Shown one piece after another: positions 8,514 through 63,876 of a stretch of 64,000 bases of DNA. Numbering within the stretch: position 1 is the stretch's first letter; each line of letters begins with the position of its first letter. The notes beneath the pieces were generated by a model. It was not told where the DNA came from and ran no database searches. It saw only the letters and a list, made by a program, of their open reading frames with translations. The translations under genes and the position numbers were made by a program. Source of the DNA: Cheilinus undulatus (lineage: Eukaryota > Chordata > Actinopteri > Labriformes > Labridae); assembly GCF_018320785.1 (NCBI RefSeq), contig NC_054886.1, positions 35,400,110 to 35,464,109 of the forward strand. The letters run 5' to 3'.

Positions 8514-10338
8514 TCACTGAGCGACCTCACCATCAGGAGGCATGGTCACTCCCCAAGGCATTGTGGGTAGATAATGTGCCAGCCACTCGCCCCAGCTGCT
8601 CCTCGGCTCCTCCCTTTCCTCCCCTCCTTGTTTCACCTCCCATCCTCCCACCACCCAGTCCAGCTCCTCCCTCCCTGCCCCCGCCTCCTCCCGCTCCTCC
8701 CTTAGAATCACACTGAAGCGCTTTCTGGAAACTCCTCCGCTCCTCTCTCTGCTCGTATCGCCATCTTTCCCTCCCTTTCTACTCCTTCCATCTTCTGCAG
8801 AGACCCGGCACTCCTCCGCTACATCCCTCCACCCGTCTATCTCCTCCTCTTTCCTTATCAGACGGTACAGGGTCTTCCTGTACACTCCTCTGTCCCCCAT
8901 CCCTCCTCTGTCCTCCATCCTTCCTCTGTCCCCTTCTGCTCCTGTTGGCTCTAGTGTGACCAGGACTGGTTCAGTCCCTTGCTCTCCTTCCTTTGCTCCC
9001 TCCCTTTCTGAAGCGTCTCCTCCGTCTCTGTCGACATACAGAACAGAGCGGTGCAACGCCATCACTCCTCCTTCTCCTGTGACTTCCTTTTCCTCCTTCC
9101 TGCTGTGCACTAACAACCGGATTCCCTCACTACCACCTCTCCTCGCCTGCATCACACCGATCCTCTGGTACAAGGTAATCAGCCTCCAGGCTGTCATTAA
9201 TATGCAGCAAGCCAATGCAATGCACAGCAGTAGGCAACCTGCAAAAAGCCAAAAACAGAACACCTGTTCACCTGTCATGGTGCTGACTTTACGCCGAGAT
9301 GGGGTTGAATTGGTGGAAGATGGCGCAGCAGTGGCTGTCGTGACCGCCCAGGTCGTATCCTGTGGTGTCGGTGATGTCAGGATGGAAGGGAAACCTATGG
9401 TTGTTCTAGCAGGTGTTGGCTGCTCTGTGGATTTTACATCAGGGGATTCAGTAGTGGGTCTAACTGTGGAAAGAGTGGGATCAGTCAGAAACACTGACTC
9501 AGAATTATCCACCCACTCAACGAGACCGGTGTAGGTTTCATACAATAACTCTGTGAAAACTCTTGTGTGGACAGTATAGAGTCCTTCTGTCGGCACAAGT
9601 ACAGCAGGCAAAGTCTCAGCAGGAGTAGGAGGAGGAGGAGTAGGAGGAAGAGTAGCAGCAGGAGTAGTAGGAGGAGGAGTAGGAGGAGGAAGAGTAGCAG
9701 CAGGAGTAGTAGGAGGAAGAGTAGGAGGAGGAAGAGTAGCAGCAGAAGTAGTAGGAGGAGGAGTAGGAGGAGGAGTAGGAGGAGGAAGAGTAGCAGCAGG
9801 AGTAGTAGGAGGAGGAGTAGGAGGAAGAGTAGCAGCAGGAGTAGGAGGAGGAGGAGTAGGAGGAAGAGTAGCAGCAGGAGTAGTAGGAGGAGTAGTAGCA
9901 GGAGGAAGAGTGGTCGGAGGAGGAGGAAGAGTAACAGCAGTGGTGGGAGCAGCAGTAGGTATGGTTGTCTGTAAGAAGTCTCCCCTTCCGTCCCACTCTG
10001 GTGGACACAGATCTGACTCCTCCAGGTTCATCACAGGTTTACCCACGTGCCATGGTGGAGAGCTACACACCTTAGGACAAAAACCATCAGAGTTAGCCAA
10101 GAACTTCTGAGTCTTTACTGAGTCTACACACTGATGTTTTCCTGCTCATTCCACTCACCACCTCTAATGCACCAGACATGATCGTTTCGCCATCCCGAAT
10201 GTAGACATTTAAGTCAAAATCAACCATATATGTTTGTAGGTAAAGATTGGAACAGGTGCAGTCCCAGGGATTGGCTGAGAGGAACAGATAGGGCACCTCC
10301 TCCTTCTTGTTGAACCAACCATCTGGCATCAGCTTGAT
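8514..10338 (-). CDS. gp1ba: gp1ba copy A terminal exon: LRR C-cap, stalk, membrane span, tail
   Basis: This exon starts after TTTCAG with IKLMPDGWFNKKEE. Its opening frame runs to a TAA at 10093, giving only the LRR C-cap plus a novel tail. The downstream frame, open from 10100 to 8514, carries LANSDGFCPKVC, the stalk, the membrane span and the tail. The two frames differ by one nucleotide. The cytoplasmic tail is rich in Glu/Arg/Gly and ends HYLPTMPWGVTMPPDGEVAQ. It has no obvious sequence match to the short human tail, so filamin and 14-3-3 binding cannot be asserted from the sequence alone. Confidence 0.8.
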
Positions 10339-13300
10339 CTGAAATTTAAAGGAACAGTCCAGTGGATTAAGAAACATCTCTGTTAGCACCAAAGGTCATT
10401 TATTTCTGATCAAATACTTCTACAGTTCTGTGTCCTTGTTCTCCAACCTTGTTGTTCTCCATGTACAGAGTCTCTATGGATGTTAGGGGGTGGAGCATGA
10501 GCTGGGGAAGAACCTTGATCTGGTTTGATGACAAGTCCAGGATCTAGACAAGACATCATGATCTTAAAACCCAATTTCTGCCTCATGATCCTTATCCTAA
10601 CATTCCCCTACATGATCTTCATCTTAACATTCTTCTACATAATTTTCATTCTAACATTCCACTACATGATCTACATTCTAACATTCCACTACATGCTCTA
10701 CATATTAAGTTTTTCCTAATTGATCTTCAACCTAACATTCCCTTACATGATCTACATCCTAACATTCTGTTACATGATCTACATATTAAGTTTTTCCTAA
10801 ATGATCTTCAACCTAACATTCCCTTACATGATCTACATTCTAACATTCCACTACATGATCTACATATTAAGTTTTTCCTAAATGATCTTCAACCTAACAT
10901 TCCCTTACATGATCTACATTCTAACATTCCACTACATGCTCTACATATTAAGTTTTTCCTAATTGATCTTCAACCTAACATTCCCTTACATGATCTACAT
11001 CCTAACATTCTGTTACATGATCTACATATTAAGTTTTTCCTAAATGATCTTCAACCTAACATTCCCTTACATGATCTACATCCTAACATTCTGTTACATG
11101 ATCTACATATTAAGTTTTTCCTAATTGATCTTCAACCTAACATTCCACTACATGATCTACATCCCAGAATTTCTTCAACATGATCTTCATCCTAAAATTC
11201 TGCTACATGAACTTCATGTTCACTGTCTGGTTTAAATCCTAATGTATGGCCTCATCATCCTCATCCTAACATTCTGTGACACTATCTACATCCTGACATT
11301 CTGCTGCACGATATTCATTCTAACATTCCGCTACATGATCCTCTTCCTAATATTCCCTGACATTTCCTTCTTGATCTTCAACCTAACATTCCACTACATG
11401 AGTTACATCCTAACATTCTGCTAAATCCTGTACATCCTGAAATTACCTCTGCATAATCTTGGTCCTAATTTTCTGCTTTATGATGTATATGCTAACTTTC
11501 TGCTACATGATCATCTTCCTAACATTCTGCTATAGGATCTACATCCAGAAATTTCTCCTACAAGATCTTCATCCCAATGATCTGCCATGTTATGTACATA
11601 GGTACATTGCGCTATATAATCAACATCCCTTAAACTTCTGCTACACGATCTTCATCCTAACATTATTCTATGCCTTCTTCACCTCACTTTCTGGTATGTG
11701 ATGGACATTCAAACATGCTGCTACATGATCTACATCCTAACATTGTGCTAAAAGATCTACATCCTAACATTCTGCTACATGATCTACATCCTAACATGCT
11801 GCTACATAATCTACATCCTTATTTTTTCTCTACATGATCTACATCCTAACATTCTGCTACATGATCTACATACCAATTTTTCCTCTACATGCTCTACATC
11901 CTTACTCCCTGCTTCAAGATGGACATCTTAGCATTTTTCAAAATGATCTTCACCTTAACATTCCCCTACGTGACACACATCCTAACATTCTACCACATGA
12001 TCTTCATCTGGGCTTTCTTCAACATCATCTTTATTCTGACATTTCCCTTCATGATCCTTATACTGACATTCAACAACATTGTCTTCCTCCTAACATTCTG
12101 CTTCATGATTTTTATCCCAACTTTCCTCTACACATGATTTATTCTAACATTCTGCATGATCTGCAACCTAAAAAATGTGTCCACATGATCAACATGCAAA
12201 CTTTCTCCTTGATGATCCTCATCCTAACATTCTTCTTTATGACCTCTATCCTAACATTCCACTTCATGATCTCCATCCTAACATTCCACTTCATGATCTC
12301 CATCCTAACATTCCACTTCATGATCTCCATCCTAACATTCTGCTTCATGATCCTCATCCTAACATTCTTCTTCATGACCTCTATCCTAACATTCTGCTAC
12401 ATGCCTTTACCCCCAGTAAGCTAGTCCACAGTATCCTCCCACCCTCAGAGCTCATGCTAGCTCCCTGACCTGAAGTCTGTCCAGTCCAGAGAAGGTCTGG
12501 TCAGTCAGAGAGACGATGGTGTTGTTGTCCAGGTAGAGCTCAGTCAGAGCGGGACAGGCGGAGAAGGCGTGGTCAGAGAGGGACGTCAGACGGTTTGATC
12601 CCAGGCGGAGAACACTGAGAGTGGGCAGGAGTGGAGAACCACTGGGGGTCACCTCTGGAACCTGAACAAACACAGAGTCTGATACCAGCGGGATTCTCTT
12701 CATTTATTCAGTAAATATTCACAGTATGCATGTCTGGATCTTAGAGACACCTTGTTTCCTGTGAGGTCAATCTCATATAGGTCTGTGAAGACAGTGAAGG
12801 AGGACCAGGACAGACTGGAGAACAGGTTGTTGGGGAACAAAAGAACCTTAAAGAAGAGAGTAGAGGGAGAAGTGTCAGTTCTTGCCTTCACACTGACATC
12901 TTATCACTCTACACAGGAAGCAGAATTTCCTCCTATCAGACACTCATCCAGTCAGGGTGCAGCTCATCCTGTTACCAGTTTCCGTACTCCTGCCATTGTT
13001 TACTCAATACTCCAAAAAATTGTCCTGACATTATCATTTAGTCCAATGTAGGATTGTGGCATGAAATCTAAACATGCTCTTATTTGTTGCTGCCCAAAAC
13101 CTCAACATTGCTACCATCTGACTTCCTCACAGAAAATGCTAGAGAACTATAGAATAAACCAGAATGGTACATCTAAATCCCCAAATACTGTAGTTAGAAG
13201 AACTTTATCAGCTCTTAGAGAAGGATGAGCACTCAGACAGCCCTAGTGATGGATAACTCACATCCTTCATCAAACCAAAACAGACAAATGATTAGTAATT

Positions 13301-16300
13301 TCAGCCCACTTCATCTATCTAACATTATTAGAACACATATAAACTAACAATCTCTTCCTTATGTTGACTAAACATTGTTGGCATGGAGGGGAAAAAAAAC
13401 AACCAACATCCCCAGCTTCACCAACATTCATTCCTAGCTTTAAATATGATATCATTAAGGTTATAAAACATTATATTCTCTGCCTTTGAAGATGATGTCA
13501 TTAAGCTTATAAAACATTCTATCCTCTGCCTTTGAAGATGATGTCATTAAGGTTATAAAACATTCTATTCTCTGCCTTTGAAGATGATGTCATTAAGCTA
13601 ATAAAACATTCTGTCCTCTGCCTTTGAAGATGATGTCATTAAGCTTATAAAACATTCTATCCTCTGCCTTTGAAGATGATGTCATTAAGCTTATAAAACA
13701 TTCTATCCTCTGCCTTTGAAGATGATGTCATTAAGGTTATAAAACATTCTATCCTCTGCCTTTGAAGATGATGTCATTAAGCTTATAAAACATTCTATCC
13801 TCTGCCTCTGAAGATGATGTCATTAAGCTTATAACACATTCTATTCTCTGCCTTTGAAGATGATGTCATTAAGCTTATAAAACATTCTATTGTCTGCCTT
13901 TGAAGATGATGTCATTAAAGCTAATAAAACATTCCCTCTCTGCCTTTGAACAGATGTCATTAAAGCTAATAAAACATTCCCTCTCTGCCTTTGAAGATGA
14001 TGTCATTAAACTTAATAAAACATTCCCTCTCTGCCTTTGAAGTTGATGTCATTAAACTTTATAAAACATTCCCTCTCTGCCTTTGAAGATGATGTCATCA
14101 AAGCTGATAAAACATTCCCTCTCTGCCTTTGAAGATGTCATTAATGCTAATAAAAGAACATTCCCTCTCTGCCTTTGAAGATGATGTCATTAAAGCTAAT
14201 AAAACATTCCCTCTCTGCCTTTGAAGATGATGTCATTAAAGCTAATAAAACATTCTATCCTCTGCCTTTGAAGATGATGTCATTAAGCTAATAAAACATT
14301 CTATTCCCTGCCTTTGAAGATGATGTCATTAAGCTTATAAAACATTCTATTCTCTGCCTTTGAAGATGATGTCATTAAGCTTATAAAACATTCTATCCTC
14401 TGCCTCTGAAGATGATGTCATTAAGCTAATAAAACATTCTATTCCCTGCCTTTGAAGATGATGTCATTAAGCTAATAAAACATTCTATCCTCTGCCTTTG
14501 AAGATGATGTCATTAAGCTTATAAAACATTCTATTGTCTGCCTTTGAAGATGATGTCATTAAGCTTATAAAACATTCTATCCTCTGCCTTTGAAGATGAT
14601 GTCATTAAGCTTATAAAACATTCTATTGTCTGCCTTTGAAGATGATGTCATTAAGCTTATAAAACATTCTATCCTCTGCCTTTGAAGATGATGTCATTAA
14701 GCTTATAAAACATTCTATTCTCTGCCTTTGAAGATGATGTCATTAAGCTTATAAGACATTCTATTCTCTGCCTTTGAACAGATGTCATTAAAGCTAATAA
14801 AACATTCCCTCTCTGCCTTTGAAGATGATGTCATTAAACTTAATAAAACATTCCCTCTCTGCCTTTGAAGATGATGTCATTCAACTTTATAAAACATTCC
14901 CTCTAGCCTTTGAAGATGATGTCATCAAAGCTGATAAATTATTCCCTCTCTGCCTTTGAAGATGTCATCAAAGCTAATAAAACATTCCCTCTCTGCCTTT
15001 GAAGATGATGTCATTAAAGCTAATAAAACATTCCCTCTCTGCCTTTGAAGATGATGTCATTAAAGCTAATAAAACATTCCCTCTCTGCCTTTGAAGATGA
15101 TGTCATTAAAGCTAATAAAACATTCCCTCTCTGCCTTTGAAGATGATGTCATCAAAGCTAATAAAACATTCCCTCTCTGCCTTTGAAGATGATGTCATTA
15201 AGCTAATAAAACATTCTATTCCCTGCCTTTGAAGATGATGTCATTAAGCTAATAAAACATTCTATCCTCTGCCTTTGAAGATGATGTCATTAAGCTTATA
15301 AAACATTCTATTGTCTGCCTTTGAAGATGATGTCATTAAGCTTATAAAACATTCTATCCTCTGCCTCTGAAGATGATGTCATTAAGCTAATAAAACATTC
15401 TATCCTCTGCCTTTGAAGATGATGTCATTAAGCTAATAAAACATTCTATTCCCTGCCTTTGAAGATGATGTCATTAAGCTAATAAAACATTCTATCCTCT
15501 GCCTTTGAAGATGATGTCATTAAGCTTATAAAACATTCTATTGTCTGCCTTTGAAGATGATGTCATTAAGCTTATAAAACATTCTATCCTCTGCCTTTGA
15601 AGATGATGTCATTAAGCTAATAAAACATTCCCTCTCTGCCTTTGAAGATGATGTCATTAAGCTAATAAAACATTCTATCCTCTGCCTTTGAAGATGATGT
15701 CATTAAGCTTATAAAACATTCTATTGTCTGCCTTTGAAGATGATGTCATTAAGCTTATAAAACATTCTATCCTCTGCCTCTGAAGATGATGTCATTAAGC
15801 TAATAAAACATTCTATCCTCTGCCTTTGAAGATGATGTCATTAAGCTAATAAAACATTCTATCCTCTGCCTTTGAAGATGATGTCATTAAGCTTATAAAA
15901 CATTCTATTGTCTGCCTTTGAAGATGATGTCATTAAGCTTATAAAACATTCTATTGTCTGCCTTTGAAGATGATGTCATTAAGCTTATAAAACATTCTAT
16001 CCTCTGCCTTTGAAGATGATGTCATTAAGCTTATAAAACATTCTATTGTATGCCTTTGAAGATGATGTCATTAAGCTTATAAAACATTCTATCCTCTGCC
16101 TTTGAAGATGATGTCATTAAGCTTATAAAACATTCTATTGTCTGCCTTTGAAGATGATGTCATTAAGCTTATAAAACATTCTATCCTCTGCCTCTGAAGA
16201 TGATGTCATTAAGCTTATAAAACATTCTATTCCCTGCCTTTGAAGATGATGTCATTAAGCTTATAAAACATTCTATCCTCTGCCTTTGAAGATGATGTCA

Positions 16301-18881
16301 TTAAGCTTATAAAACATTCTATTGTCTGCCTTTGAAGATGATGTCATTAAGCTTATAAAACATTCTATCCTCTGCCTCTGAAGATGATGTCATTAAGCTA
16401 ATAAAACATTCTATTCCCTGCCTTTGAAGATGATGTCATTAAGCTTATAAAACATTCTATCCTCTGCCTTTGAAGATGATGTCATTAAGCTTATAAAACA
16501 TTCTATCCTCTGCCTCTGAAGATGATGTCATTAAGCTAATAAAACATTCTATTCCCTGCCTTTGAAGATGATGTCATTAAGCTAATAAAACATTCTATCC
16601 TCTGCCTTTGAAGATGATGTCATTAAGCTTATAAAACATTCTATTGTCTGCCTTTGAAGATGATGTCATTAAGCTTATAAAACATTCTATCCTCTGCCTT
16701 TGAAGATGATGTCATTAAGCTTATAAAACATTCTATCCTCTGCCTCTGAAGATGATGTCATTAAGCTTATAAAACATTCTATTCTCTGCCTTTGAAGATG
16801 ATGTCATTAAGCTAATAAAACATATTATTCTCTGCCTCTGAAGATGATGTCATTAAGCTTATAAAACATTCTATCCTCTGCCTCTGAAGATGATGTCATT
16901 AAGCTTATAAAACATTCTATCCTCTGCCTCTGAAGATGATGTCATTAAGCTAATAAAACATTCTATTCCCTGCCTTTGAAGATGATGTCATTAAGCTTAT
17001 AAAACATTCTATTCTCTGCCTTTGAAGATGATGTCATTAAGCTTATAAAACATTCTATCCTCTGCCTCTGAAGATGATGTCATTAAGCTAATAAAACATT
17101 CTATTCCCTGCCATTGAAGATGATGTCATTAAGCTTATAAAACATTCTATCCTCTGCCTTTGAAGATGATGTCATTAAGCTAATAAAACATTCTATTCTC
17201 TGCCTTTGAAGATGATGTCATTAAGTTTATAAAACATTCTATTCTCTGCCTTTGAAGATGATGTCATTAAGCTTATAAAACATTCTATTCTCTGCCTTTG
17301 AAGATGATGTCATTAAGCTTATAAGACATTCTATCCTCTGCCTCTGAAGATGATGTCATTAAGCTAATAAAACATTCTATTCCCTGCCTTTGAAGATGAT
17401 GTCATTAAGCTTATAAAACATTCTATCCTCTGCCTTTGAAGATGATGTCATTAAGCTAATAAAACATTCTATTCCCTGCCTTTGAAGATGATGTCATTAA
17501 GCTTATAAAACATTCTATTGTCTGCCTTTGAAGATGATGTCATTAAGCTTATAAAACATTCTATCCTCTGCCTCTGAAGATGATGTCATTAAGCTAATAA
17601 AACATTCTATTCCCTGCCTTTGAAGATGATGTCATTAAGCTAATAAAACATTCTATCCTCTGCCTTTGAAGATGATGTCATTAAGCTTATAAAACATTCT
17701 ATTGTCTGCCTTTGAAGATGATGTCATTAAGCTTATAAAACATTCTATCCTCTGCCTCTGAAGATGATGTCATTAAGCTAATAAAACATTCTATCCTCTG
17801 CCTTTGAAGATGATGTCATTAAGCTAATAAAACATTCTATTCCCTGCCTTTGAAGATGATGTCATTAAGCTAATAAAACATTCCCTCTCTGCCTTTGAAG
17901 ATGATGTCATTAAGCTTATAAAACATTCTATTGTCTGCCTTTGAAGATGATGTCATTAAGCTTATAAAACATTCTATCCTCTGCCTCTGAAGATGATGTC
18001 ATTAAGCTAATAAAACATTCTATCCTCTGCCTTTGAAGATGATGTCATCATAGCTAATACAACATTCTATCCCCATACGTATCGGTTTATTGATGCCAAT
18101 GTACCACAGTAATCCACCAGTTCTTTGTCCCAGTCTGTCTATAGGGATATGCCGTACTTTCATTAGACTGATTTGAAGACATCTTTGGGGGGGGGGGGAC
18201 TTTGCTCTCAGGGCCAGGGCTCCTCCCAGGAACTTATTAAAGTTTAAGTTAACTCATTTAAGTTAACTGAATCTATTTGATGCTTTTTGTATTCACTCTT
18301 GGTCTTACTCTCAATCATGTTATCATTGAAAAGAATGTCAGACGTGTAGCTCGTTTGATGCTCACCTATAGTGACTATATCTTGGGGCCTCTTAGAGCTG
18401 GAGGCCTCAGGTAGTTGCCTGTTCTCTCTCTGAAGGTAAAACCACCTACAGTATGCTGGTATGCTGGAGCTCTGCTCCTCAGTAATGCAGTGAAACTGCT
18501 TCATGTTCTTTTCTGCTCACTGCTCTGTTCTTCTTCACTCCAATTTCAATCAGATTTGATGCTCCAGTTTCCACAAATATGAAAAATGATTCTATGACTT
18601 TTATTTCTAATAGCACTGGATCATTAAAGTCTAACAGCTATTTTTCTCTGTTGTTTTTTCTCTTAAATATTTCAATTAACCCTTTCAGATGGAATGTCAT
18701 GTTTGGCCGTCTGTGTTACCCTGATCAGGGGATCCAGTCCTGCTGGGATGTCGCTCAGTCCGGCCCCCTTGCAGTTCGTCAACACTCGGTGGTCCTTGTC
18801 TCTGCCGTCCTGGCATCCAGGTACCCCTGTAACCATGGCGACCTCATCCAGGAGGAAGAGGAGGAGGAAGAAGAGCTGCAT
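8514..18881 (-). CDS. gp1ba: Platelet glycoprotein Ib alpha-like, copy A (long mucin-stalk form)
   Basis: Coding exons (minus): 18881-18720, 12846-12751, 12661-12470, 10543-10448, 10338-8514; the four introns are GT-AG and phase 0. About 789 residues if the frame break near 10137 is resolved. The order is a signal peptide (MQLFFLLLFLL), LRR N-cap with two Cys (TNCKGAGLSDIPAGL), about five leucine-rich repeats split at the Asn of LxxLxLxxN, an LRR C-cap (NPWDCTCSNLY), a Pro/Thr mucin stalk (about residues 307-425), an acidic Tyr-bearing segment (YETYTGLVEW), a membrane span (about 541-566, FCFWLFAGCLLLCIALACC) and a roughly 220-residue charged tail. This is the GP1BA plan: in mammals it binds von Willebrand factor and thrombin on platelets and filamin inside. 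Identity also rests on the kif1c neighbour. The gene is the downstream member of a tandem pair. The frame from exon 5's start stops at 10093; see the finding on the frame break. Confidence 0.85.
9610..9935 (-). repeat. gp1ba: In-frame coding VNTR of the mucin stalk (copy A)
   Basis: The plus strand is almost pure purine (GGAGGAGTAGGAGGAAGAGTAGC-like), so the coding strand is a polypyrimidine tract. It encodes about eight imperfect copies of a unit such as AATLPPPTPPPTTP (11-20 residues). Units differ by multiples of three bases, so length changes keep frame. Human GP1BA also has a length-polymorphic Thr/Pro-rich VNTR in its macroglycopeptide. The unit here differs, so the two look like independent expansions. 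The Thr density predicts heavy O-glycosylation. Confidence 0.85.
10545..12400. repeat. Degenerate 27-bp minisatellite, gp1ba copy A intron 4
   Basis: Repeats of a unit of about 27 bp combining CATGATCTACAT and CCTAACATTCTGCTA, with many substitutions and indels. It fills nearly all of intron 4 (10544-12469). The better-preserved part at 12215-12400 gives a 9-residue periodic minus-strand frame (NVRMEIMKW). The unit is clearly related to the far larger, more uniform array in the same intron of copy B (CCTAACATTCTTCTAACTG), so the repeat predates the duplication. Confidence 0.85.
12846..13440. other. Unique part of gp1ba copy A intron 1
   Basis: Non-repetitive intron sequence between exon 2 and the 46-bp minisatellite. 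The 99-codon plus-strand frame across 12752-13051 overlaps exon 2 antisense and has no domain features. I see no gene or element here. Confidence 0.5.
13440..18065. repeat. 46-bp minisatellite, gp1ba copy A intron 1 (about 100 copies)
   Basis: About 4.6 kb of tandem units built from GATGATGTCATTAAGCTTAT, AAAACATTCTATCCTCTGCC and TTTGAA. Two main subfamilies alternate in blocks: one with AAGCTTATAAAACATTCTATCC and one with AAAGCTAATAAAACATTCCC (around 13900-14240 and 14760-15180). Single-base variants (TTGTCTGCC, TTCCCTGCC) recur in fixed order, so multi-unit blocks have been duplicated. The matching intron of copy B (about 0.8 kb) lacks the array, so it expanded in A or was lost in B. Confidence 0.95.
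18183..18200. repeat. Poly-G tract
   Basis: A run of 12 G in TTTGGGG...GGGGAC in intron 1 of copy A. Such tracts are unstable and often mis-sized in assemblies. Confidence 0.8.
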
Positions 18882-18988: not shown

Positions 18989-19002
18989 ACAGGAAGTGAT
19001 AA
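18989..19002 (-). promoter_or_regulatory. Composite ETS-GATA site upstream of gp1ba copy A
   Basis: The plus strand reads ACAGGAAGTGATAA: an ETS core (CAGGAAGT) fused to a GATA core (TGATAA), about 108 bp upstream of the copy A start codon. The identical 14-mer lies about 116 bp upstream of the copy B start. From established knowledge, megakaryocyte/thrombocyte genes including GP1BA are driven by GATA-1 plus ETS factors (FLI1/ETS1). An E-box-like CAGCTG follows at about 19015 and is also present in copy B. No clear TATA box was seen. Confidence 0.65.
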
Positions 19003-19284
19003 AAACTCTTTAGTTCAGCTGGTCGTCTCCTGATATCAGACCGCAGCTCCTCATTGGCTGTCTTCATGTTTCTCCTCATGTTTATCTCTCTTAAGCAGTT
19101 TCCTGTTTCTCCTACATGTTCAATAAAAAGTTCTAAAACCCTGAACAGAAACCAGCGCTCCAGCAGATTTCACTGTTTCTGATTAGTCAGACAGATGATC
19201 CTCTGATTAACAGCTTTGACAGACAGGATCTGAGCTAGAGGACAAATATTTCCACATATGTATTTATGTACCTTTGGTCTATTT

Positions 19285-20790
19285 AATATGGATTTCATGT
19301 GAAGCTTATTTTTATTTTCACGTGTATATATGTAAGTTATTTTATTTTCATGTGTATTTATGAAGGTTATGTTTATTTTCATGTGTATTTATGAAGGTTA
19401 TTCTTATTTTCATGTGAATTTATGAAGGTTATGTTTATTTTCATGTGAATTTATGAAGGTTATGTTTATTTTCATGTGTATTTATAAAGGTTATTCTTAT
19501 TTTCATGTGAATTTATGAAGGTTATTTTTATTTTCATGTGTATTTATGAAGGTTATGTTTATTTTCATGTGAATTTATGAAGGTTATGTTTATTTTCATG
19601 TGTATTTATGAAGGTTATGTTTATTTTCATGTGAATTTATGAAGGTTATTCTTATTTTCATGTGTATTTATGAAGGTTATGTTTATTTTCATGTGTATTT
19701 ATGAAGGTTATGTTTATTTTCATGTGTATTTATGAAGGTTATGTTTATTTTCATGTGTATTTATGAAGGTTATTCTTATTTTCATGTGTATTTATGAAGG
19801 TTATGTTTATTTTCATGTGTATTTATGAAGGTTATTCTTATTTTCATGTGTATTTATGAAGGTTATTCTTATTTTCATGTGTATTTATGAAGGTTATTCT
19901 TATTTTCATGTGTATTTATGAAGGTTATGTTTATTTTCATGTGTATTTATGAAGGTTATGTTTATTTTCATGTGTATTTATGAAGGTTATTTTTATTTTC
20001 ATGTGAATTTATGAAGGTTATGTTTATTTTCATGTGTATTTATGAAGGTTATTCTTATTTTCATGTGTATTTATGAAGGTTATTCTTATTTTCATGTGTA
20101 TTTATGAAGGTTATTCTTATTTTCATGTGTATTTATGAAGGTTATGTTTATTTTCATGTGTATTTATGAAGGTTATGTTTATTTTCATGTGTATTTATGA
20201 AGGTTATTTTTATTTTCATGTGAATTTATGTAGGTTATTCTTATTTTCATGTGTATTTATGAAGGTTATTCTTATTTTCATGTGTATTTATGAAGGTTAT
20301 GTTTATTTTCATGTGTATTTATGAAGGTTATGTTTATTTTCATGTGTATTTATGAAGGTTATGTTTATTTTCATGTGTATTTATGAAGGTTATGTTTATT
20401 TTCATGTGTATTTATGAAGGTTATTTTTATTTTCATGTGTATTTATGAAGGTTATGTTTATTTTCATGTGTATATATAAAGGTTATTCTTATTTTCATGT
20501 GAATTTATGAAGGTTATTCTTATTTTCATGTGAATTTATGAAGGTTATGTTTATTTTCATGTGTATTTATGAAGGTTATTCTTATTTTCATGTGAATTTA
20601 TGAAGGTTATTTTTATTTTCATGTGTATTTATGAAGGTTATTTTTATTTTCTTGTGTATTTATGAAAGTTATGTTTATTTTCATGTGTATTTATGAAGGT
20701 TATGTTTATTTTCATGTGTATTTATGAAAGTTATGTTTATTTTCATGTGTATTTATGAAGGTTATGTTTATTTTCATGTGTATTTATGAT
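19285..20790. repeat. 31-bp minisatellite between gp1ba copies (about 48 copies)
   Basis: A tandem array of a 31-bp AT-rich unit: TTTATTTTCATGTG, then T/A-ATTTATGAAGGTTAT. Variation is mostly at three sites (GTTTATT/TCTTATT/TTTTATT, GTGTATTT/GTGAATTT). It lies in the spacer between the 3' end of copy B and the 5' end of copy A, starting about 300 bp upstream of the copy A ETS-GATA site. Confidence 0.95.
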
Positions 20791-20794
20791 GGAT

Positions 20795-21170
20795 TATATT
20801 TGTAACGAAGCTTTATTATGTTTTTTTATTTTATTTTTTGAGGATATTAGTGTTTAATTTCTAGTTAATTTATAAATAACAGCTTTTGTTTTAATTGTAA
20901 GTGGATTTAAGAGGGTTATTTCTGATTTTAAGTCATTTTTTTGGTTTGAATGTATGAATGTTGTTTCTAAAATTAGATGGATTTAAATATCTTATGTCTG
21001 ATTAAATGTTATTTTTATTAGTGTTCCAGACCCTCCATTTAAAAAGCCCTAAATCAGTTTTTCTAATCCTTAAATAAAGTCAACCAGCCAGGAGTCTTGT
21101 GACTAGTAAACATCTGATTTGATGCAGAAAATGGACTTTAAAAAAAGAGAGAAAGGGCAACAGTACAAGA
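20795..21170. other. Spacer, no gene seen
   Basis: AT-rich unique sequence between the 31-bp array and the presumed 3' end of gp1ba copy B. No open frame, repeat or RNA gene was recognised. Confidence 0.5.
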
Positions 21171-21174
21171 CATC

Positions 21175-21180
21175 TTTATT
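21175..21180 (-). terminator. Probable poly(A) signal of gp1ba copy B
   Basis: TTTATT on the plus strand, AATAAA on the minus strand, within CTTTATTTGCAGGAGG. It lies about 0.67 kb downstream of the copy B stop codon at 21854, so the 3' UTR would be about 0.7 kb. Confidence 0.5.
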
Positions 21181-21853
21181 TGCAGGAGGAGGAACTACAT
21201 ATCCCACAATCCCAGCTGTTACTGTACTTTTCCAGCTGTTACTGCATGCATGGGCCTCCTCTCTACAATCATCTCTGATGTAATATTTTTATCGCTTATA
21301 TAGAGGAACATATAACCTCTGCTGAATCTCCACCACACTGATGACTGTTATTTCTGTCGCTGTGTCGCCCCCTGGTGGTGAAATGACACTAATGCAGCAG
21401 GAGGACTACAGGTAAGAAAGAGCAGCTGAGATGAAGGTGGGTGTGTGTAATGCTGAGCCTGTTTAAGAGTTTCATTCTTTTAGAATCTTCTAGAAATATT
21501 TCTACTAACATGTATGTAACACATGGATGTTTTAACATGAATTTAACCCCTAAACTACCACAGTAAACATTAAGGTCATGCTTTTCCCTCCATGAAACGT
21601 CTGTTTACACAGAGAAGCTAGCATAGCTAAAGCACACGTTTAGCTCTGGGCTGACTTTGGGACCTCAGGATCCGTCTGAAGGAGATCCAGCTCATTTAGT
21701 CTGTTACTTCATCTGTAGGGACAAATCCACGCTTGTTTCTTTGTTTTCTTATCAGAGCTTTAATATCATGGGGAATAATGAGCAGACAGCATACTAGCTA
21801 GGTGTATTGGACCAAGAGTTCATCAGTCTGAAGTATTCCTTCTACCGCTGGCT

Positions 21854-24800
21854 CTAGTCTGGTGAGCGCTCGTGCATCTGTAGCATCTCCTCCATCTGTG
21901 CATGTACAGAACAGTCAACAGTTTCATATCCCTCACTACTATCCTCCTCCTCAGGTATGCTCCTCCTCCTGTACCAGGAAACACCCAACATTAACCACAG
22001 AACACAGAGCAGCACAGCTTTGACAACATTAACTATAGCAGTGAAGCTGGTTGGAGTGACCTCCTGGATCTCATCTGTTGGTGTTGATGTCAGGATGGAT
22101 GGGAGAGACTCGGACGTCCCAGCGGGTCTTGGTTGTGTTGTAGGAGATTCAGTGTTGGGTCTGACTGTAGAAAGATGAGGAGAACACAGATCTGACTCCT
22201 CCAGGTTCATCACAGGTTTACCCACGTGCCATGGTGGAGAGCTACACACCTTAGGACAAAAACCATCAGAGTTAGCCAAGAACTTCTGAGTCTTTACTGA
22301 GTCTACACACTGATGTTTTCCTGCTCATTCCACTCACCACCTCTAATGCACCAGACATGATCGTTTCGCCATCCCGAATGTAGACATTTAAGTCAAAATC
22401 AACCATATATGTTTGTAGGTAAAGATTGGAACAGGTGCAGTCCCAGGGATTGGCTGAGAGGAACAGATAGGGCACCTCCTCCTTCTTGTTGAACCAACCA
22501 TCTGGCATCAGCTTGATCTGAAATTTAAAGGAACAGTCCAGTGGATTAAGAAACATCTCTGTTAGCACCAAAGGTCATTTATTTCTGATCAAATACTTCT
22601 ACAGTTCTGTGTCCTTGTTCTCCAACCTTGTTGTTCTCCATGTACAGAATCTCTATGGATGTTAGGGGGTGGAGCATGAGCTGGGGAAGAACCTTGATCT
22701 GGTTTGACGACAAGTCCAGGATCTAGAAAATAGGACATTATGATCTTCATTCTAACATTCTGTTACATTAACTGATTTCAAATGTTATTTCTGATTAGCC
22801 CTTTTAGATAAACCATCTCATTAGGTTTTCAAACTCCATACTCACTTTCCAGATCATGATCTTCGTCCTAACAATCCATACATGCTTTTCAACCTAACAT
22901 TCTGCTCCATGATCACAAACCTTACCTTACTACATGATCCTCATCCTCACTTTCTGCTAAATGATCTTCATACCAGCATTATTCTATATAATCGTCATTA
23001 AAACTTCCTTCTACAAGACTTCCTTACATTCTTCTACATGATCTTCATTCTAACATTCTGATCCATGATCCTTATCCAAACATTCTGCTAAATGATCTTC
23101 ATCACAACAGTCTTCAACATGATCTTGATCCTAACATTCTTCTAACTGATCTGCACCCTAACATTCTTCTAACTGATCTGCGCCCTAACATTCTTCTAAC
23201 TGATCTGCACCCTAACATTCTTCTAACTGATCTGCGCCCTAACATTCTTCTAACTGATCTGCACCCTAACATTCTTCTAACTGATCTACACCCTAACATT
23301 CTTCTAACTGATCTGCACCCTAACATTCTTCTAACTGATCTACACCCTAACATTCTTCTAACTGATCTACACCCTAACATTCTTCTAACTGATCTGCGCC
23401 CTAACATTCTTCTAACTGATCTGCACCCTAACATTCTTCTAACTGATCTACACCCTAACATTCTTCTAACTGATCTACACCCTTACATTCTTCTAACTGA
23501 TCTGCGCCCTAACATTCTTCTAACTGATCTGCACCCTAACATTCTTCTAACTGATCTGCGCCCTAACATTCTTCTAACTGATCTGCACCCTAACATTCTT
23601 CTAACTGATCTACACCCTAACATTCTTCTAACTGATCTGCGCCCTAACATTCTTCTAACTGATCTGCACCCTAACATTCTTCTAACTGATCTGCGCCCTA
23701 ACATTCTTCTAACTGATCTGCACCCTAACATTCTTCTAACTGATCTGCACCCTAACATTCTTCTAACTGATCTGCACCCTAACATTCTTCTAACTGATCT
23801 GCACCCTAACATTCTTCTAACTGATCTACACCCTAACATTCTTCTAACTGATCTACACCCTTACATTCTTCTAACTGATCTGCACCCTAACATTCTTCTA
23901 ACTGATCTACACCCTAACATTCTTCTAACTGATCTGCACCCTAACATTCTTCTAACTGATCTGCACCCTAACATTCTTCTAACTGATCTGCACCCTAACA
24001 TTCTTCTAACTGATCTACACCCTAACATTCTTCTAACTGATCTACACCCTTACATTCTTCTAACTGATCTGCACCCTAACATTCTTCTAACTGATCTACA
24101 CCCTAACATTCTTCTAACTGATCTACACCCTAACATTGTTCTAACTGATCTACACCCTTACAGTGTTCTAACTGATCTACACCCTAACATTCTTCTAACT
24201 GATCTGCACCCTAACATTCTTCTAACTGATCTACACCCTAACATTCTTCTAACTGATCTACACCCTAACATTCTTCTAACTGATCTGCACCCTAACATTC
24301 TTCTAACTGATCTGCACCCTAACATTCTTCTAACTGATCTACACCCTAACATTCTTCTAACTGATCTACACCCTAACATTCTTCTAACTGATCTACACCC
24401 TAACATTCTTCTAACTGATCTACACCCTAACATTCTTCTAACTGATCTGCACCCTAACATTCTTCTAACTGATCTGCGCCCTAACATTCTTCTAACTGAT
24501 CTGCACCCTAACATTCTTCTAACTGATCTGCACCCTAAGATACTTCTCACTGATCTGCACCTAACATTCTTCTAACTGATCTGCACCCTAACATTCTTCT
24601 AACTGATCTACACCTAACATTCTTCTAACTGATCTACACCTAACATTCTTCTAACTGATCTACACCCTAACATTCTTCTAACTGATCTACACCCTAACAT
24701 TCTTCTAACTGATCTACACCCTAACATTCTTCTAACTGATCTAAACCCTAACATTCTTCTAACTGATCTACACCCTAACAATTTTCTAACTGATCTGCAC

Positions 24801-27800
24801 CCTTATATTCTTCTAACTGATCTGCACCCTAACATTCTTCTAACTGATCTGCACCCTAACATTCTTCTAACTGATCTGCACCCTAACATTCTTCTAACTG
24901 ATCTACACCCTAACATTCTTCTAACTGATCTACACCCTAACATTCTTCTAACTGATCTACACCCTAACATTCTTCTAACTGATCTACAACCTAACATTCT
25001 TCTAACTGATCTGCACCCTTATATTCTTCTAACTGATCTACACCCTAACATTCTTCTAACTGATCTGCGCCCTAACATTCTTCTAACTGATCTACACCCT
25101 AACATTCTTCTAACTGATCTGCACCCTAACATTCTTCTAACTGATCTGCACCCTAACATTCTTCTAACTGATCTACACCCTAACATTCTTCTAACTGATC
25201 TACACCCTAACATTCTTCTAACTGATCTACACCCTAACATTCTTCTAACTGATCTACACCCTAACATTCTTCTAACTGATCTACACCCTAACATTCTTCT
25301 AACTGATCTACACCCTAACATTCTTCTAACTGATCTGCGCCCTAACATTCTTCTAACTGATCTACACCCTAACATTCTTCTAACTGATCTACACCCTTAC
25401 ATTCTTCTAACTGATCTACACCCTAACATTCTTCTAACTGATCTACACCCTAACATTCTTCTAACTGATCTACACCCTAACATTCTTCTAACTGATCTAC
25501 ACCCTAACATTCTTCTAACTGATCTACACCCTTACATTCTTCTAACTGATCTACACCCTTACATTCTTCTAACTGATCTACACCCTAACAATTTTCTAAC
25601 TGATCTACACCCTTATATTCTTCTAACTGATCTACACCCTAACATTCTTCTAACTGATCTACACCCTAACATTCTTCTAACTGATCTACACCCTTACATT
25701 GTTCTAACTGATCTGCACCCTTATATTCTTCTAACTGATCTACACCCTAACATTCTTCTAACTGATCTGCACCCTAACATTCTTCTAACTGATCTGCACC
25801 CTAACACTCTTCTAACTGATCTACACCCTAACATTCTTCTAACTGATCTGCACCCTAACATTCTTCTAACTGATCTACACCCTAACATTCTTCTAACTGA
25901 TCTGCACCCTAACACTCTTCTAACTGATCTACACCCTAACATTCTTCTAACTGATCTGCACCCTAACATTCTTCTAACTGATCTGCACCCTAACATTCTT
26001 CTAACTGGTCTGCACCCTAACATTCTTCTAACTGATCTACACCCTAACATTCTTCTAACTGATCTACACCCTAACATTCTTCTAACTGATCTACACCCTA
26101 ACATTCTTCTAACTGATCTACACCCTAACACTCTTCTAACTGATCTACACCCTAACATTCTTCTAACTGATCTGCACCCTAACATTCTTCTAACTGATCT
26201 GCACCCTAACATTCTTCTAACTGATCTGCACCCTTATATTCTTCTAACTGATCTACACCCTAACATTCTTCTAACTGATCTACACCCTAACACTCTTCTA
26301 ACTGATCTACACCCTAACATTCTTCTAACTGATCTACACCCTAACATTCTTCTAACTGATCTGCACCCTAACATTCTTCTAACTGATCTACACCCTAACA
26401 TTCTTCTAACTGATCTACACCCTTACAGTGTTCTAACTGATCTACACCCTAACAATTTTCTAACTGATCTGCACCCTTATATTCTTCTAACTGATCTGCA
26501 CCCTAACATTCTTCTAACTGATCTGCACCCTAACATTCTTCTAACTGATCTGCACCCTAACATTCTTCTAACTGATCTACACCCTAACATTCTTCTAACT
26601 GATCTACACCCTAACATTCTTCTAACTGATCTACACCCTAACATTCTTCTAACTGATCTACAACCTAACATTCTTCTAACTGATCTGCACCCTTATATTC
26701 TTCTAACTGATCTACACCCTAACATTCTTCTAACTGATCTGCACCCTAACATTCTTCTAACTGATCTGCACCCTAACATTCTTCTAACTGATCTGCACCC
26801 TAACATTCTTCTAACTGATCTGCACCCTAACATTCTTCTAACTGATCTACACCCTAACATTCTTCTAACTGATCTGCACCCTAACATTCTTCTAACTGAT
26901 CTACACCCTAACATTCTTCTAACTGATCTACACCCTAACATTCTTCTAACTGATCTACACCCTAACATTCTTCTAACTGATCTACACCCTAACATTCTTC
27001 TAACTGATCTGCGCCCCAACATTCTTCTAACTGATCTGCGCCCTAACATTCTTCTAACTGATCTACACCCTAACATTCTTCTAACTGATCTGCACCCTAA
27101 CATTCTTCTAACTGATCTGCACCCTAACATTCTTCTAACTGATCTGCACCCTAACATTCTTCTAACTGATCTACACCCTAACATTCTTCTAACTGATCTA
27201 CACCCTAACATTCTTCTAACTGATCTGCACCCTAACATTCTTCTAACTGATCTACACCCTAACATTCTTCTAACTGATCTACACCCTAACATTCTTCTAA
27301 CTGATCTAAACCCTAACATTCTTCTAACTGATCTACACCCTAACAATTTTCTAACTGATCTGCACCCTTATATTCTTCTAACTGATCTGCACCCTAACAT
27401 TCTTCTAACTGATCTGCACCCTAACATTCTTCTAACTGATCTGCACCCTAACATTCTTCTAACTGATCTACACCCTAACATTCTTCTAACTGATCTACAC
27501 CCTAACATTCTTCTAACTGATCTACACCCTAACATTCTTCTAACTGATCTACAACCTAACATTCTTCTAACTGATCTGCACCCTTATATTCTTCTAACTG
27601 ATCTACACCCTAACATTCTTCTAACTGATCTGCGCCCTAACATTCTTCTAACTGATCTACACCCTAACATTCTTCTAACTGATCTGCACCCTAACATTCT
27701 TCTAACTGATCTGCACCCTAACATTCTTCTAACTGATCTACACCCTAACATTCTTCTAACTGATCTGCACCCTAACATTCTTCTAACTGATCTACACCCT

Positions 27801-30800
27801 AACATTCTTCTAACTGATCTACACCCTAACATTCTTCTAACTGATCTACACCCTAACATTCTTCTAACTGATCTGCGCCCCAACATTCTTCTAACTGATC
27901 TGCGCCCTAACATTCTTCTAACTGATCTACACCCTAACATTCTTCTAACTGATCTGCACCCTAACATTCTTCTAACTGATCTGCACCCTAACATTCTTCT
28001 AACTGATCTACACCCTAACATTCTTCTAACTGATCTGCACCCTAACATTCTTCTAACTGATCTACACCCTAACATTCTTCTAACTGATCTACACCCTAAC
28101 ATTCTTCTAACTGATCTAAACCCTAACATTCTTCTAACTGATCTACACCCTAACATTCTTCTAACTGATCTACACCCTTACATTCTTCTAACTGATCTAC
28201 ACCCTAACATTCTTCTAACTGATCTACACCCTAACATTCTTCTAACTGATCTACACCCTAACATTCTTCTAACTGATCTACACCCTAACATTCTTCTAAC
28301 TGATCTACACCCTTACATTGTTCTAACTGATCTACACCCTAACATTCTTCTAACTGATCTACACCCTAACATTCTTCTAACTGATCTACACCCTAACATT
28401 CTTCTAACTGATCTACACCCTTACATTCTTCTAACTGATCTACACCCTAACATTCTTCTAACTGATCTGCACCCTAACATTCTTCTAACTGATCTAAACC
28501 CTAACATTCTTCTAACTGATCTACACCCTAACATTCTTCTAACTGATCTACACCCTTACATTCTTCTAACTGATCTACACCCTAACATTCTTCTAACTGA
28601 TCTACACCCTAACATTCTTCTAACTGATCTACACCCTAACATTCTTCTAACTGATCTACACCCTAACATTCTTCTAACTGATCTACACCCTTACATTCTT
28701 CTAACTGATCTACACCCTAACAATTTTCTAACTGATCTACACCCTAACATTCTTCTAACTGATCTACACCCTAACATTCTTCTAACTGATCTACACCCTA
28801 ACATTCTTCTAACTGATCTACACCCTTACATTGTTCTAACTGATCTTTATATACTGACACTAACATTCTTCTAACTGATCTGCACCTAACATTCTTCTAA
28901 CTGATCTGCACCTAACACTCTTCTAACTGATCTACACCTAACATTCTTCTAACTGATCTACACCCTAACATTCTTCTAACTGATCTACACCCTAACATTC
29001 TTCTAACTGATCTACACCCTAACACTCTTCTAACTGATCTACACCCTAACATTCTTCTAACTGATCTGCACCCTAACATTCTTCTAACTGATCTGCACCC
29101 TAACATTCTTCTAACTGATCTGCACCCTTAGATTCTTCTAACTGATCTACACCTAACATTCTTCTAACTGATCTACACCTAACATTCTTCTAACTGATCT
29201 ACACCCTAACATTCTTCTAACTGATCTACACCTAACACTCTTCTAACTGATCTACACCATAACAGTCTTCTAACTGATCTTGACCCTAACATTCTTCTAA
29301 CTGATCTGCACCCTAACATTCTTCTAACTGATCTGCACCCTTATATTCTTCTAACTGATCTACACCCTAACATTCTTCTAACTGATCTACACCCTAACAC
29401 TCTTCTAACTGATCTACACCCTAACATTCTTCTAACTGATCTGCACCCTAACATTCTTCTAACTGGTCTGCACCCTAACATTCTTCTAACTGATCTACAC
29501 CCTAACACTCTTCTAACTGATCTACACCCTAACATTCTTCTAACTGATCTTCACCCTAACATTCTTCTAACTGATCTACACCCTAACATTCTTCTAACTG
29601 ATCTACACCTAACACTCTTCTAACTGATCTACACCTAACATTCTTCTAACTGATCTGCACCTAACATTCTTCTAACTGATCTGCACCTAACATTCTTCTA
29701 ACTGATCTACACCTAACATTCTTCTAACTGATCTACACCCTAACATTCTTCTAACTGATCTGCACCTAACATTCTTCTAACTGATCTGCACCTAACATTC
29801 TTCTAACTGATCTGCACCCTAACATTCTTCTAACTGATCTACACCCTAACATTCTTCTAACTGGTCTGCACCCTAACATTCTTCTAACTGATCTGCACCC
29901 TAACATTCTTCTAACTGATCTACACCCTAACATTCTTCTAACTGATCTGCACCCTAACATTCTTCTAACTGATCTACACCCTAACATTCTTCTAACTGAT
30001 CTACACCCTAACATTCTTCTAACTGATCTACACCCTAACATTCTTCTAACTGGTCTGCACCCTAACATTCTTCTAACTGATCTACACCCTAACATTCTTC
30101 TAACTGATCTGCACCCTAACATTCTTCTAACTGATCTACACCCTAACATTCTTCTAACTGATCTACACCCTAACATTCTTCTAACTGATCTACACCCTAA
30201 CATTCTTCTAACTGATCTACACCCTAACATTCTTCTAACTGATCTACACCCTAACATTCTTCTAACTGATCTGCACCCTAACATTCTTCTAACTGATCTA
30301 CACCCTAACATTCTTCTAACTGGTCTGCACCCTAACATTCTTCTAACTGATCTCCATCCTAACATTCTGCTACATGCCTTTACCCCCAGTAAGCTAGTCC
30401 ACAGTATCCTCCCACCCTCAGAGCTCATGCTAGCTCCCTGACCTGAAGTCTGTCCAGTCCAGAGAAGGTCTGGTCGGTCAGAGAGACGATGGTGTTGTTA
30501 TCCAGGTAGAGCTCAGTCAGAGCGGGACAGGCGGAGAAGGCGTGGTCAGAGAGGGACGTCAGACGGTTTGATCCCAGGCGGAGAACACTGAGAGTGGGCA
30601 GGAGTGGAGAACCACTGGGGGTCACCTCTGGAACCTGAACAAACACAGAGTCTGATACCAGCGGGATTCTCTTCATTTATTCAGTAAATATTTATGCTTG
30701 TCTGGATCTTAGAGACACCTTGTTTCCTGTGAGGTCGATCTCATATAGGTCTGTGAAGACAGTGAAGGAGGACCAGGACAGACTGGAGATCAGGTTGTTG

Positions 30801-42262: not shown

Positions 42263-63876
<21,614 letters not shown>

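What the first reader, a model, noticed from the sequence alone, without database searches (positions are those of the whole stretch)
10093..10160. Identical frame break in the LRR C-cap of both gp1ba copies: 52-nt micro-intron or 1-nt indel
In both copies (A 10093-10160, B 22272-22339) the frame from the LRR exon stops at GGC TAA, while the stalk frame is offset by one base. Two explanations restore the frame exactly. (1) A 52-nt GT-AG intron: strong donor GTG|GTGAGT at 10158, acceptor CTCAG ending at 10107; it would delete the Cys in HQC. (2) One extra A in the AAAA run (plus-strand TTTT at 10137-10140, 22316-22319); with that base discounted, Cys spacing in the C-cap fits human GP1BA closely (40 and 16 residues here, 36 and 15 there, from memory). 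If the intron is real, retention gives a soluble LRR-only protein of about 263 residues and splicing gives the membrane receptor.
Basis: partly seen in the sequence, partly recalled or inferred. Interest (0 to 1): 0.75.

Follow-up and report, generated by a model that had tools for sequence, protein, structure and literature searches.

The report
Ordinary short intron in fish gp1ba
The apparent break in both copies of this fish blood-platelet receptor gene is a normal 88-base intron, so the gene is not broken there and no unusual mechanism is needed.

Summary
The frame break is real and at the stated coordinates in both tandem gp1ba copies. It is neither a 52-nt micro-intron nor a 1-nt indel but an ordinary 88-nt GT-AG intron (copy A 10158-10071, copy B 22337-22250, minus strand). 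Splicing gives SGALEV|VCSSPPWHVGKPVMNLEESDLC and keeps the third C-cap cysteine. The intron is phase 0, like the other four introns modelled in each copy. Of 73 stop-free GT-AG joins tested, it fits 71 teleost orthologues best. Of 103 gp1ba-like proteins, 89 show x-Cys exactly at the junction and 4 more do with an alignment offset. A public Cheilinus undulatus protein for copy B is reproduced letter for letter by the model with this intron. The best solved-structure match, GPIb-alpha, aligns through the same Cys. A soluble form made by retention has no direct support. Public annotation instead gives copy B a transmembrane-less isoform through a different 92-nt intron. Verdict: ordinary, already annotated; no RNA reads were available to me.

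The parts
10071..10158 (-). Intron 5 of gp1ba copy A, 88 nt, GTGAGT...CTAAC...TTTTTGTCCTAAG, phase 0
22250..22337 (-). Intron 5 of gp1ba copy B, identical 88 nt
   Evidence: exact agreement with public protein P0121
10159..10338 (-). Copy A exon 5: last LRR and first half of the C-cap (NPWDCTC...SGALEV)
8514..10070 (-). Copy A exon 6: second half of the C-cap, Pro/Thr-rich stalk, transmembrane segment and conserved tail, stop
   Evidence: tail shared with 62 of 71 orthologues
10448..10543 (-). Copy A exon 4 (LRR)
12470..12661 (-). Copy A exon 3 (LRRs)
12751..12846 (-). Copy A exon 2 (LRR)
18720..18881 (-). Copy A exon 1: start codon, signal-peptide-like start, N-cap
22338..22517 (-). Copy B exon 5, identical to copy A exon 5
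21854..22249 (-). Copy B exon 6: second half of the C-cap, short stalk, transmembrane segment, short tail, stop
22627..22722 (-). Copy B exon 4
   Evidence: P0121
30443..30634 (-). Copy B exon 3
   Evidence: P0121
30719..30814 (-). Copy B exon 2
   Evidence: P0121
31626..31787 (-). Copy B exon 1
   Evidence: P0121
21969..22060 (-). Optional 92-nt intron inside copy B exon 6 used by public isoform X2; its removal deletes the transmembrane segment
   Evidence: Model with it equals P0121 over 310 of 310 residues

Best explanation
The frame break is the fifth intron of a six-coding-exon teleost gp1ba gene: a normal phase-0, 88-nt spliceosomal GT-AG intron that splits the LRR C-cap between its CxC pair and its third cysteine. 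The spliceosome removes GTGAGT...CTAAC...TTTTTGTCCTAAG and joins SGALEV to VCSSPPWH, so the mRNA of each copy encodes an uninterrupted GPIb-alpha-like protein. Shown here: the sequence signals, the phase, the fit to orthologues, and exact agreement with a public protein of the species for copy B. Inferred: splicing in vivo (no reads were available), the branch point, and receptor function.
For: Donor top 0.47% of 3843 GTs and acceptor top 2.4% of 5460 AGs on the window's minus strand; CTAAC branch match 23 nt before the intron end with no other AG between it and the acceptor. All five modelled introns of each copy are phase 0, and lengths 84-109 nt recur in the same genes. Best of 73 stop-free GT-AG joins against 71 orthologues: 271.1, runner-up 258.2, 52-nt join 249.4, no intron 196.4. 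73 of 74 proteins prefer it over three alternatives. 89 of 103 gp1ba-like proteins show x-Cys exactly at the junction, 4 more with an alignment offset. Cys spacing 32/19 at 63 of 73 sites, as in both window copies. Public C. undulatus protein P0121 is reproduced letter for letter. The GPIb-alpha structures align across the junction through the third Cys.
Against: No RNA read was seen. Splice scores alone are not decisive: 25 of 2000 random 260-nt sequences of similar composition hold an in-phase 60-150 nt pair as good, and the matrices were recalled. The acceptor is AAG, the rarer kind (recalled). P0078 prefers the colinear reading. Most orthologue sequences, and P0121, are database proteins that may be predicted from genomes.
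Confidence: 0.97

Rival explanations
1. A 52-nt GT-AG micro-intron ending at CTCAG 10107 / 22286 (first reader, option 1); splicing would insert KFLANSDGFCPK before VCSSPP.
For: In frame, with the same strong donor.
Against: Acceptor score -3.6, no pyrimidine tract, other AGs just upstream. Mean orthologue score 249.4 against 271.1. The only 5-residue match of the 12 extra residues among 200 proteins held is P0109, a mammalian toll-like receptor 3 (name).
Confidence: 0.01
2. One extra A in the AAAA run, an assembly error or true indel in a colinear exon (first reader, option 2).
For: Discounting one A opens the frame. P0078's gene model has 42 extra residues at this point.
Against: 73 of 74 proteins fit the 88-nt join better. 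The 29 extra residues have no 5-residue match among 200 proteins held other than P0109. The same run stands in both copies, though these are near-identical.
Confidence: 0.01
3. The intron is real but regulated: its retention makes a soluble 263-residue LRR protein, splicing makes the membrane receptor.
For: Retention reaches TAA after 21 residues. Stop codons this close to the last junction should escape decay (inference). Public gene models P0144, P0145, P0147, P0149 continue with residues that look intron-derived, and the X2 isoforms P0142 and P0143 end soon after the junction.
Against: Retention would lose the third-cysteine region of the cap. None of 200 proteins held shares 5 residues in a row with the window's tail. 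The read-through-like tails differ from each other, as mis-annotation would give.
Confidence: 0.05
4. Both copies are pseudogenes broken before the duplication.
For: The naive frame does stop in both.
Against: All six exons are open in both copies with consistent phase. Copy A keeps a tail shared with 62 of 71 orthologues, and only copy B lacks that tail.
Confidence: 0.01

Closest known systems
Teleost gp1ba (platelet glycoprotein Ib alpha chain), e.g. Labrus bergylta P0002, Semicossyphus pulcher P0003, Halichoeres trimaculatus P0004
   Same: 71-73% identical over the LRR and C-cap part, ungapped across the junction, C-cap Cys in register
   Different: The window has two tandem copies; copy B has a short stalk and lacks the shared tail. 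Exon structure of the relatives was not seen directly.
Cheilinus undulatus public protein P0121, named SLIT and NTRK-like protein 2 isoform X2
   Same: Identical, 310 of 310 residues, to copy B spliced with the 88-nt intron and the 92-nt intron
   Different: Lacks the transmembrane segment of the longer copy B model; its public name points to another LRR family, while the C-cap profile ranks GPIb-alpha first
GPIb-alpha in solved structures (1m10, 1m0z and others; human by recall)
   Same: Best solved-structure match of the joined fish C-cap profile, E 9.1e-12; aligned from the last LRR through the third Cys
   Different: 36 residues between second and third C-cap Cys (counted in the alignment) against 32 here. 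The alignment ends before the fourth Cys. That the human coding region is in one exon is recalled, not checked.

Membership tests
Spliceosomal GT-AG intron | Consensus donor | tested here: met
   GTG|GTGAGT, score 10.0, top 0.47% of 3843 GTs (recalled matrix)
Spliceosomal GT-AG intron | Pyrimidine-rich acceptor with a branch point upstream | tested here: met
   TTTTTGTCCTAAG|G, score 7.3, top 2.4% of 5460 AGs; GGCTAAC 23 nt before the intron end; no other AG between
Spliceosomal GT-AG intron | Removal restores a conserved protein | tested here: met
   Best of 73 joins against 71 orthologues; equals P0121 for copy B
Spliceosomal GT-AG intron | Removed from mRNA in this fish | not testable with these tools
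   No reads available
GP1BA | LRR domain with a GPIb-alpha-type C-cap | tested here: met
   LRR_8 1e-24 for copy B; GPIb-alpha chains are the first 11 rows of the C-cap profile search
GP1BA | Four C-cap cysteines (CxC, then two more) | tested here: met
   Present after the 88-nt splice and invariant in 10 of 10 aligned C-caps; the fourth Cys is outside the alignment to the solved structure
GP1BA | Pro/Thr-rich stalk, transmembrane segment and cytoplasmic tail | tested here: inconclusive
   Copy A sequence shows a stalk and hydrophobic segment and shares its tail with 62 of 71 orthologues; copy B lacks that tail. No transmembrane predictor was run.
GP1BA | Binds von Willebrand factor on thrombocytes | not testable with these tools
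   No functional data

The most novel reading that the evidence does not exclude
Splice choice in the last exons of teleost gp1ba makes soluble as well as membrane GPIb-alpha. In this fish copy B has an optional 92-nt intron whose removal deletes the transmembrane segment, which would make copy B a secreted decoy for the ligand of copy A: its LRR exons 3-5 are nearly identical to those of copy A, while stalk and tail have diverged. In other fish, alternative ends at the intron-5 junction (P0142, P0143) would do the same.
Probability: 0.12. Interest if true: 0.45.

Novelty: already known. Interest (0 to 1): 0.1.

Why it matters
It removes a false alarm: neither copy is frameshifted here, no micro-intron or assembly error need be invoked, and the C-cap keeps its four cysteines. 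It gives exon coordinates for both tandem gp1ba copies and points to the one thing worth checking in RNA data, the transmembrane-skipping intron of copy B.

Tried and rejected
The 52-nt intron, the discounted-A reading and retention were scored against 74 proteins and lost for 73 of them. Every stop-free GT-AG join in the area, and no intron, were scored against 71.

A donor 3 nt upstream (10161, 91 nt) with the same acceptor is in frame and second best (258.2 against 271.1), but its donor is weaker (4.8 against 10.0).

Divergence between the two copies as a test of intron against exon was useless, since the region is identical.

A first mapping of exon 5 by local alignment left 62 of 103 rows unaligned at the exon end and was replaced by an end-to-end mapping. 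The rule labels 14 of 103 rows as not x-Cys. By eye, four (P0008, P0064, P0069, P0151) are the same VVC/LVC shifted by one or two columns; nine (P0078, P0136, P0142-P0147, P0149) change or end at the junction; one (P0039) lacks the second half of the cap. P0121, the window's own product, is among the 103.

Rows dropped: one search used P0001-P0072 without P0039, and not P0078 or P0083. One search used P0001-P0072, P0078 and P0083. One search listed 120 of 263 hits, so the rest were not examined.

A profile of full-length proteins against solved structures ranked other LRR proteins above GPIb-alpha; the C-cap-only profile ranks GPIb-alpha first. P0121 is publicly named SLIT and NTRK-like protein 2; SLITRK1 and SLITRK2 chains also appear, with much weaker scores (E 1.9e-6 and 1.3e-5).

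Paper searches aimed at fish gp1ba or its gene structure listed nothing on point; two of them found no paper at all. Passages and section 6 of PMC4486697 were read; other papers were seen in listings only.

No structure prediction was run: the spliced window protein cannot be read letter for letter from the window, and the sequence evidence sufficed. The third protein search was not used.

Full report
What is there. On the minus strand the window carries two tandem gp1ba-like genes. Copy A is modelled with six coding exons: 18881-18720, 12846-12751, 12661-12470, 10543-10448, 10338-10159 and 10070-8514 (760 residues). Copy B is modelled with 31787-31626, 30814-30719, 30634-30443, 22722-22627, 22517-22338 and 22249-21854 (373 residues). 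All exon lengths are multiples of three, so all five modelled introns of each copy are phase 0. The flagged place lies between exons 5 and 6.

Which intron. Thirty-six bases beyond its CTCAG, exactly 12 codons and so in the same frame, stands GGCTAACTCTGATGGTTTTTGTCCTAAG|GTG: a CTAAC branch-point match, a T-rich tract, and no AG between them and the final one. With recalled vertebrate consensus matrices the donor is in the top 0.47% of 3843 GTs on the window's minus strand, the acceptor at 10071 in the top 2.4% of 5460 AGs, and CTCAG at 10107 only in the top 55%. Two other introns in each copy are of similar length (89 and 109 nt in A; 84 and 109 nt in B). Scores alone are not proof: 25 of 2000 random 260-nt sequences of similar composition hold an in-phase 60-150 nt pair as good.

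Homologues decide it. Two protein searches (one search listed 120 of 263 hits; one search listed all 109) gave 200 different proteins, many of them teleost gp1ba. Four hypotheses were scored against 74 of them: 73 prefer the 88-nt join. P0078 prefers the colinear reading, because its gene model has 42 extra residues at the junction. An unbiased test of every stop-free GT-AG join in the area (73 joins) against 71 orthologues puts the 88-nt join first: 271.1, against 258.2 for the runner-up, 249.4 for the 52-nt join and 196.4 for no intron. Of 103 gp1ba-like proteins mapped end to end over exon 5, 89 continue with x-Cys at the junction and 4 more do so with an alignment offset. Nine change or end at the junction, as expected where an intron boundary was mishandled, a contig ended or an alternative end was annotated. 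One lacks the region. From the CxC pair on, the Cys spacing is 32 and 19 residues at 63 of 73 sites, as in both window copies after the 88-nt splice.

The species' own public protein. P0121, named SLIT and NTRK-like protein 2 isoform X2 of Cheilinus undulatus, is reproduced over 310 of 310 residues by copy B exons 1-5, the 88-nt splice, and one further splice of 92 nt (22060-21969) inside exon 6 that removes the transmembrane segment. The window is therefore very probably from that wrasse. It lies in a 1.17-Gb, 46-contig assembly, and in the tree copies A and B are sisters inside a group of six labrid rows (100/99; the bootstrap had not settled). The intron is thus already implied by public annotation. 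Whether that annotation rests on RNA reads was not visible to me.

Transcript-like evidence in relatives. Four proteins from short unnamed contigs read through the junction with the Cys in place (P0051): P0046 (634 residues, 1905 nt with stop, on a 1971-nt contig), P0050 (684 residues, 2055 nt, on 2428), P0051 (630 residues, 1893 nt, on 2104) and P0151 (628 residues, 1887 nt, on 2401) (lengths). The contigs leave little room for introns and so look like cDNA. That is an inference, as the source label lgn is not explained by the tool. The first residues of P0046 look like the end of an unspliced upstream intron.

Comparison with a solved structure. A profile of ten joined fish C-caps finds GPIb-alpha chains in the first 11 rows (best E 9.1e-12) and aligns aesvvCdsP with ASVQCDNS of that chain, straight across the splice junction and through the third Cys. 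The alignment ends before the fourth Cys. Between second and third Cys that chain has 36 residues, counted in the alignment; the fish have 32. That the chain is human is recalled.

Soluble form. Nothing found shows that it is made: none of the 200 proteins shares five residues in a row with the window's tail. Gene models in other species that seem to read into the intron have tails unlike each other (P0144, P0145, P0147, P0149), and two X2 isoforms stop soon after the junction (P0142, P0143). A soluble product of copy B is better motivated by the 92-nt intron of P0121, whose donor is mediocre (top 8.9%) and acceptor good (top 2.0%).

The two copies. Exons 3, 4 and 5 differ by 2, 2 and 0 nt; exon 2 by 5 of 96 and exon 1 by 19 of 162 nt. 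Copy B lacks the cytoplasmic tail that copy A shares with 62 of 71 orthologues. So the identical break in two copies reflects shared ancestry or recent exchange, not independent support. A paper on vertebrate haemostasis reports that the cytoplasmic domain of GPIb-alpha is also lacking in the archosaur and turtle species it examined (PMC4486697, section 6), a resemblance only.

Verdict: a real observation with an ordinary cause. Interest is low.

Noticed in passing
window 21969-22060 (-): Optional 92-nt intron in copy B exon 6 implied by the public isoform X2 (P0121); its removal deletes the transmembrane segment.
   Followed up: partly
window 21854-22249 (-): Copy B has a short stalk and lacks the conserved cytoplasmic tail that copy A shares with 62 of 71 orthologues; tblastn found no trace of that tail in 19000-22300.
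   Followed up: partly
window 23022-30372 and 10576-12403: 27-nt minisatellites fill most of intron 3 of copy B (about 273 units, 95% matches) and of copy A (about 67 units, 67% matches); they create long spurious ORFs on both strands.
   Followed up: partly
window 13423-18070 and 19307-20801: A 46-nt minisatellite (about 101 units) in intron 1 of copy A and a 31-nt minisatellite (about 48 units) between the two genes.
   Followed up: no
window about 42-58 kb (-): Probable KIF1-family kinesin gene: motor-domain exon at 57766-58065 (Kinesin PF00225; KIF1A best solved match). ORFs at 42.2-44.2 kb look by recall like the KIF1C C-terminal part; no Pfam match there. Human GP1BA and KIF1C being neighbours is recalled.
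   Followed up: partly
window 59468-60227 (+): Tc1/mariner-like transposase fragments, below the Pfam cut-offs (HTH_Tnp_Tc3_2, DDE_3).
   Followed up: no
protein P0001 (Myripristis murdjan): A public gp1ba-like protein with two complete LRR/C-cap units in one chain; possibly tandem copies fused by the gene model.
   Followed up: no
proteins P0061/P0062, P0130/P0135, P0071/P0147: Pairs of gp1ba-like proteins on contigs of the same length in one species (Phyllopteryx, Dissostichus, Muraenolepis). The Dissostichus and Muraenolepis pairs are sisters in the tree, the Phyllopteryx pair groups with Phycodurus unresolved, so duplication or gene conversion seems to recur.
   Followed up: partly
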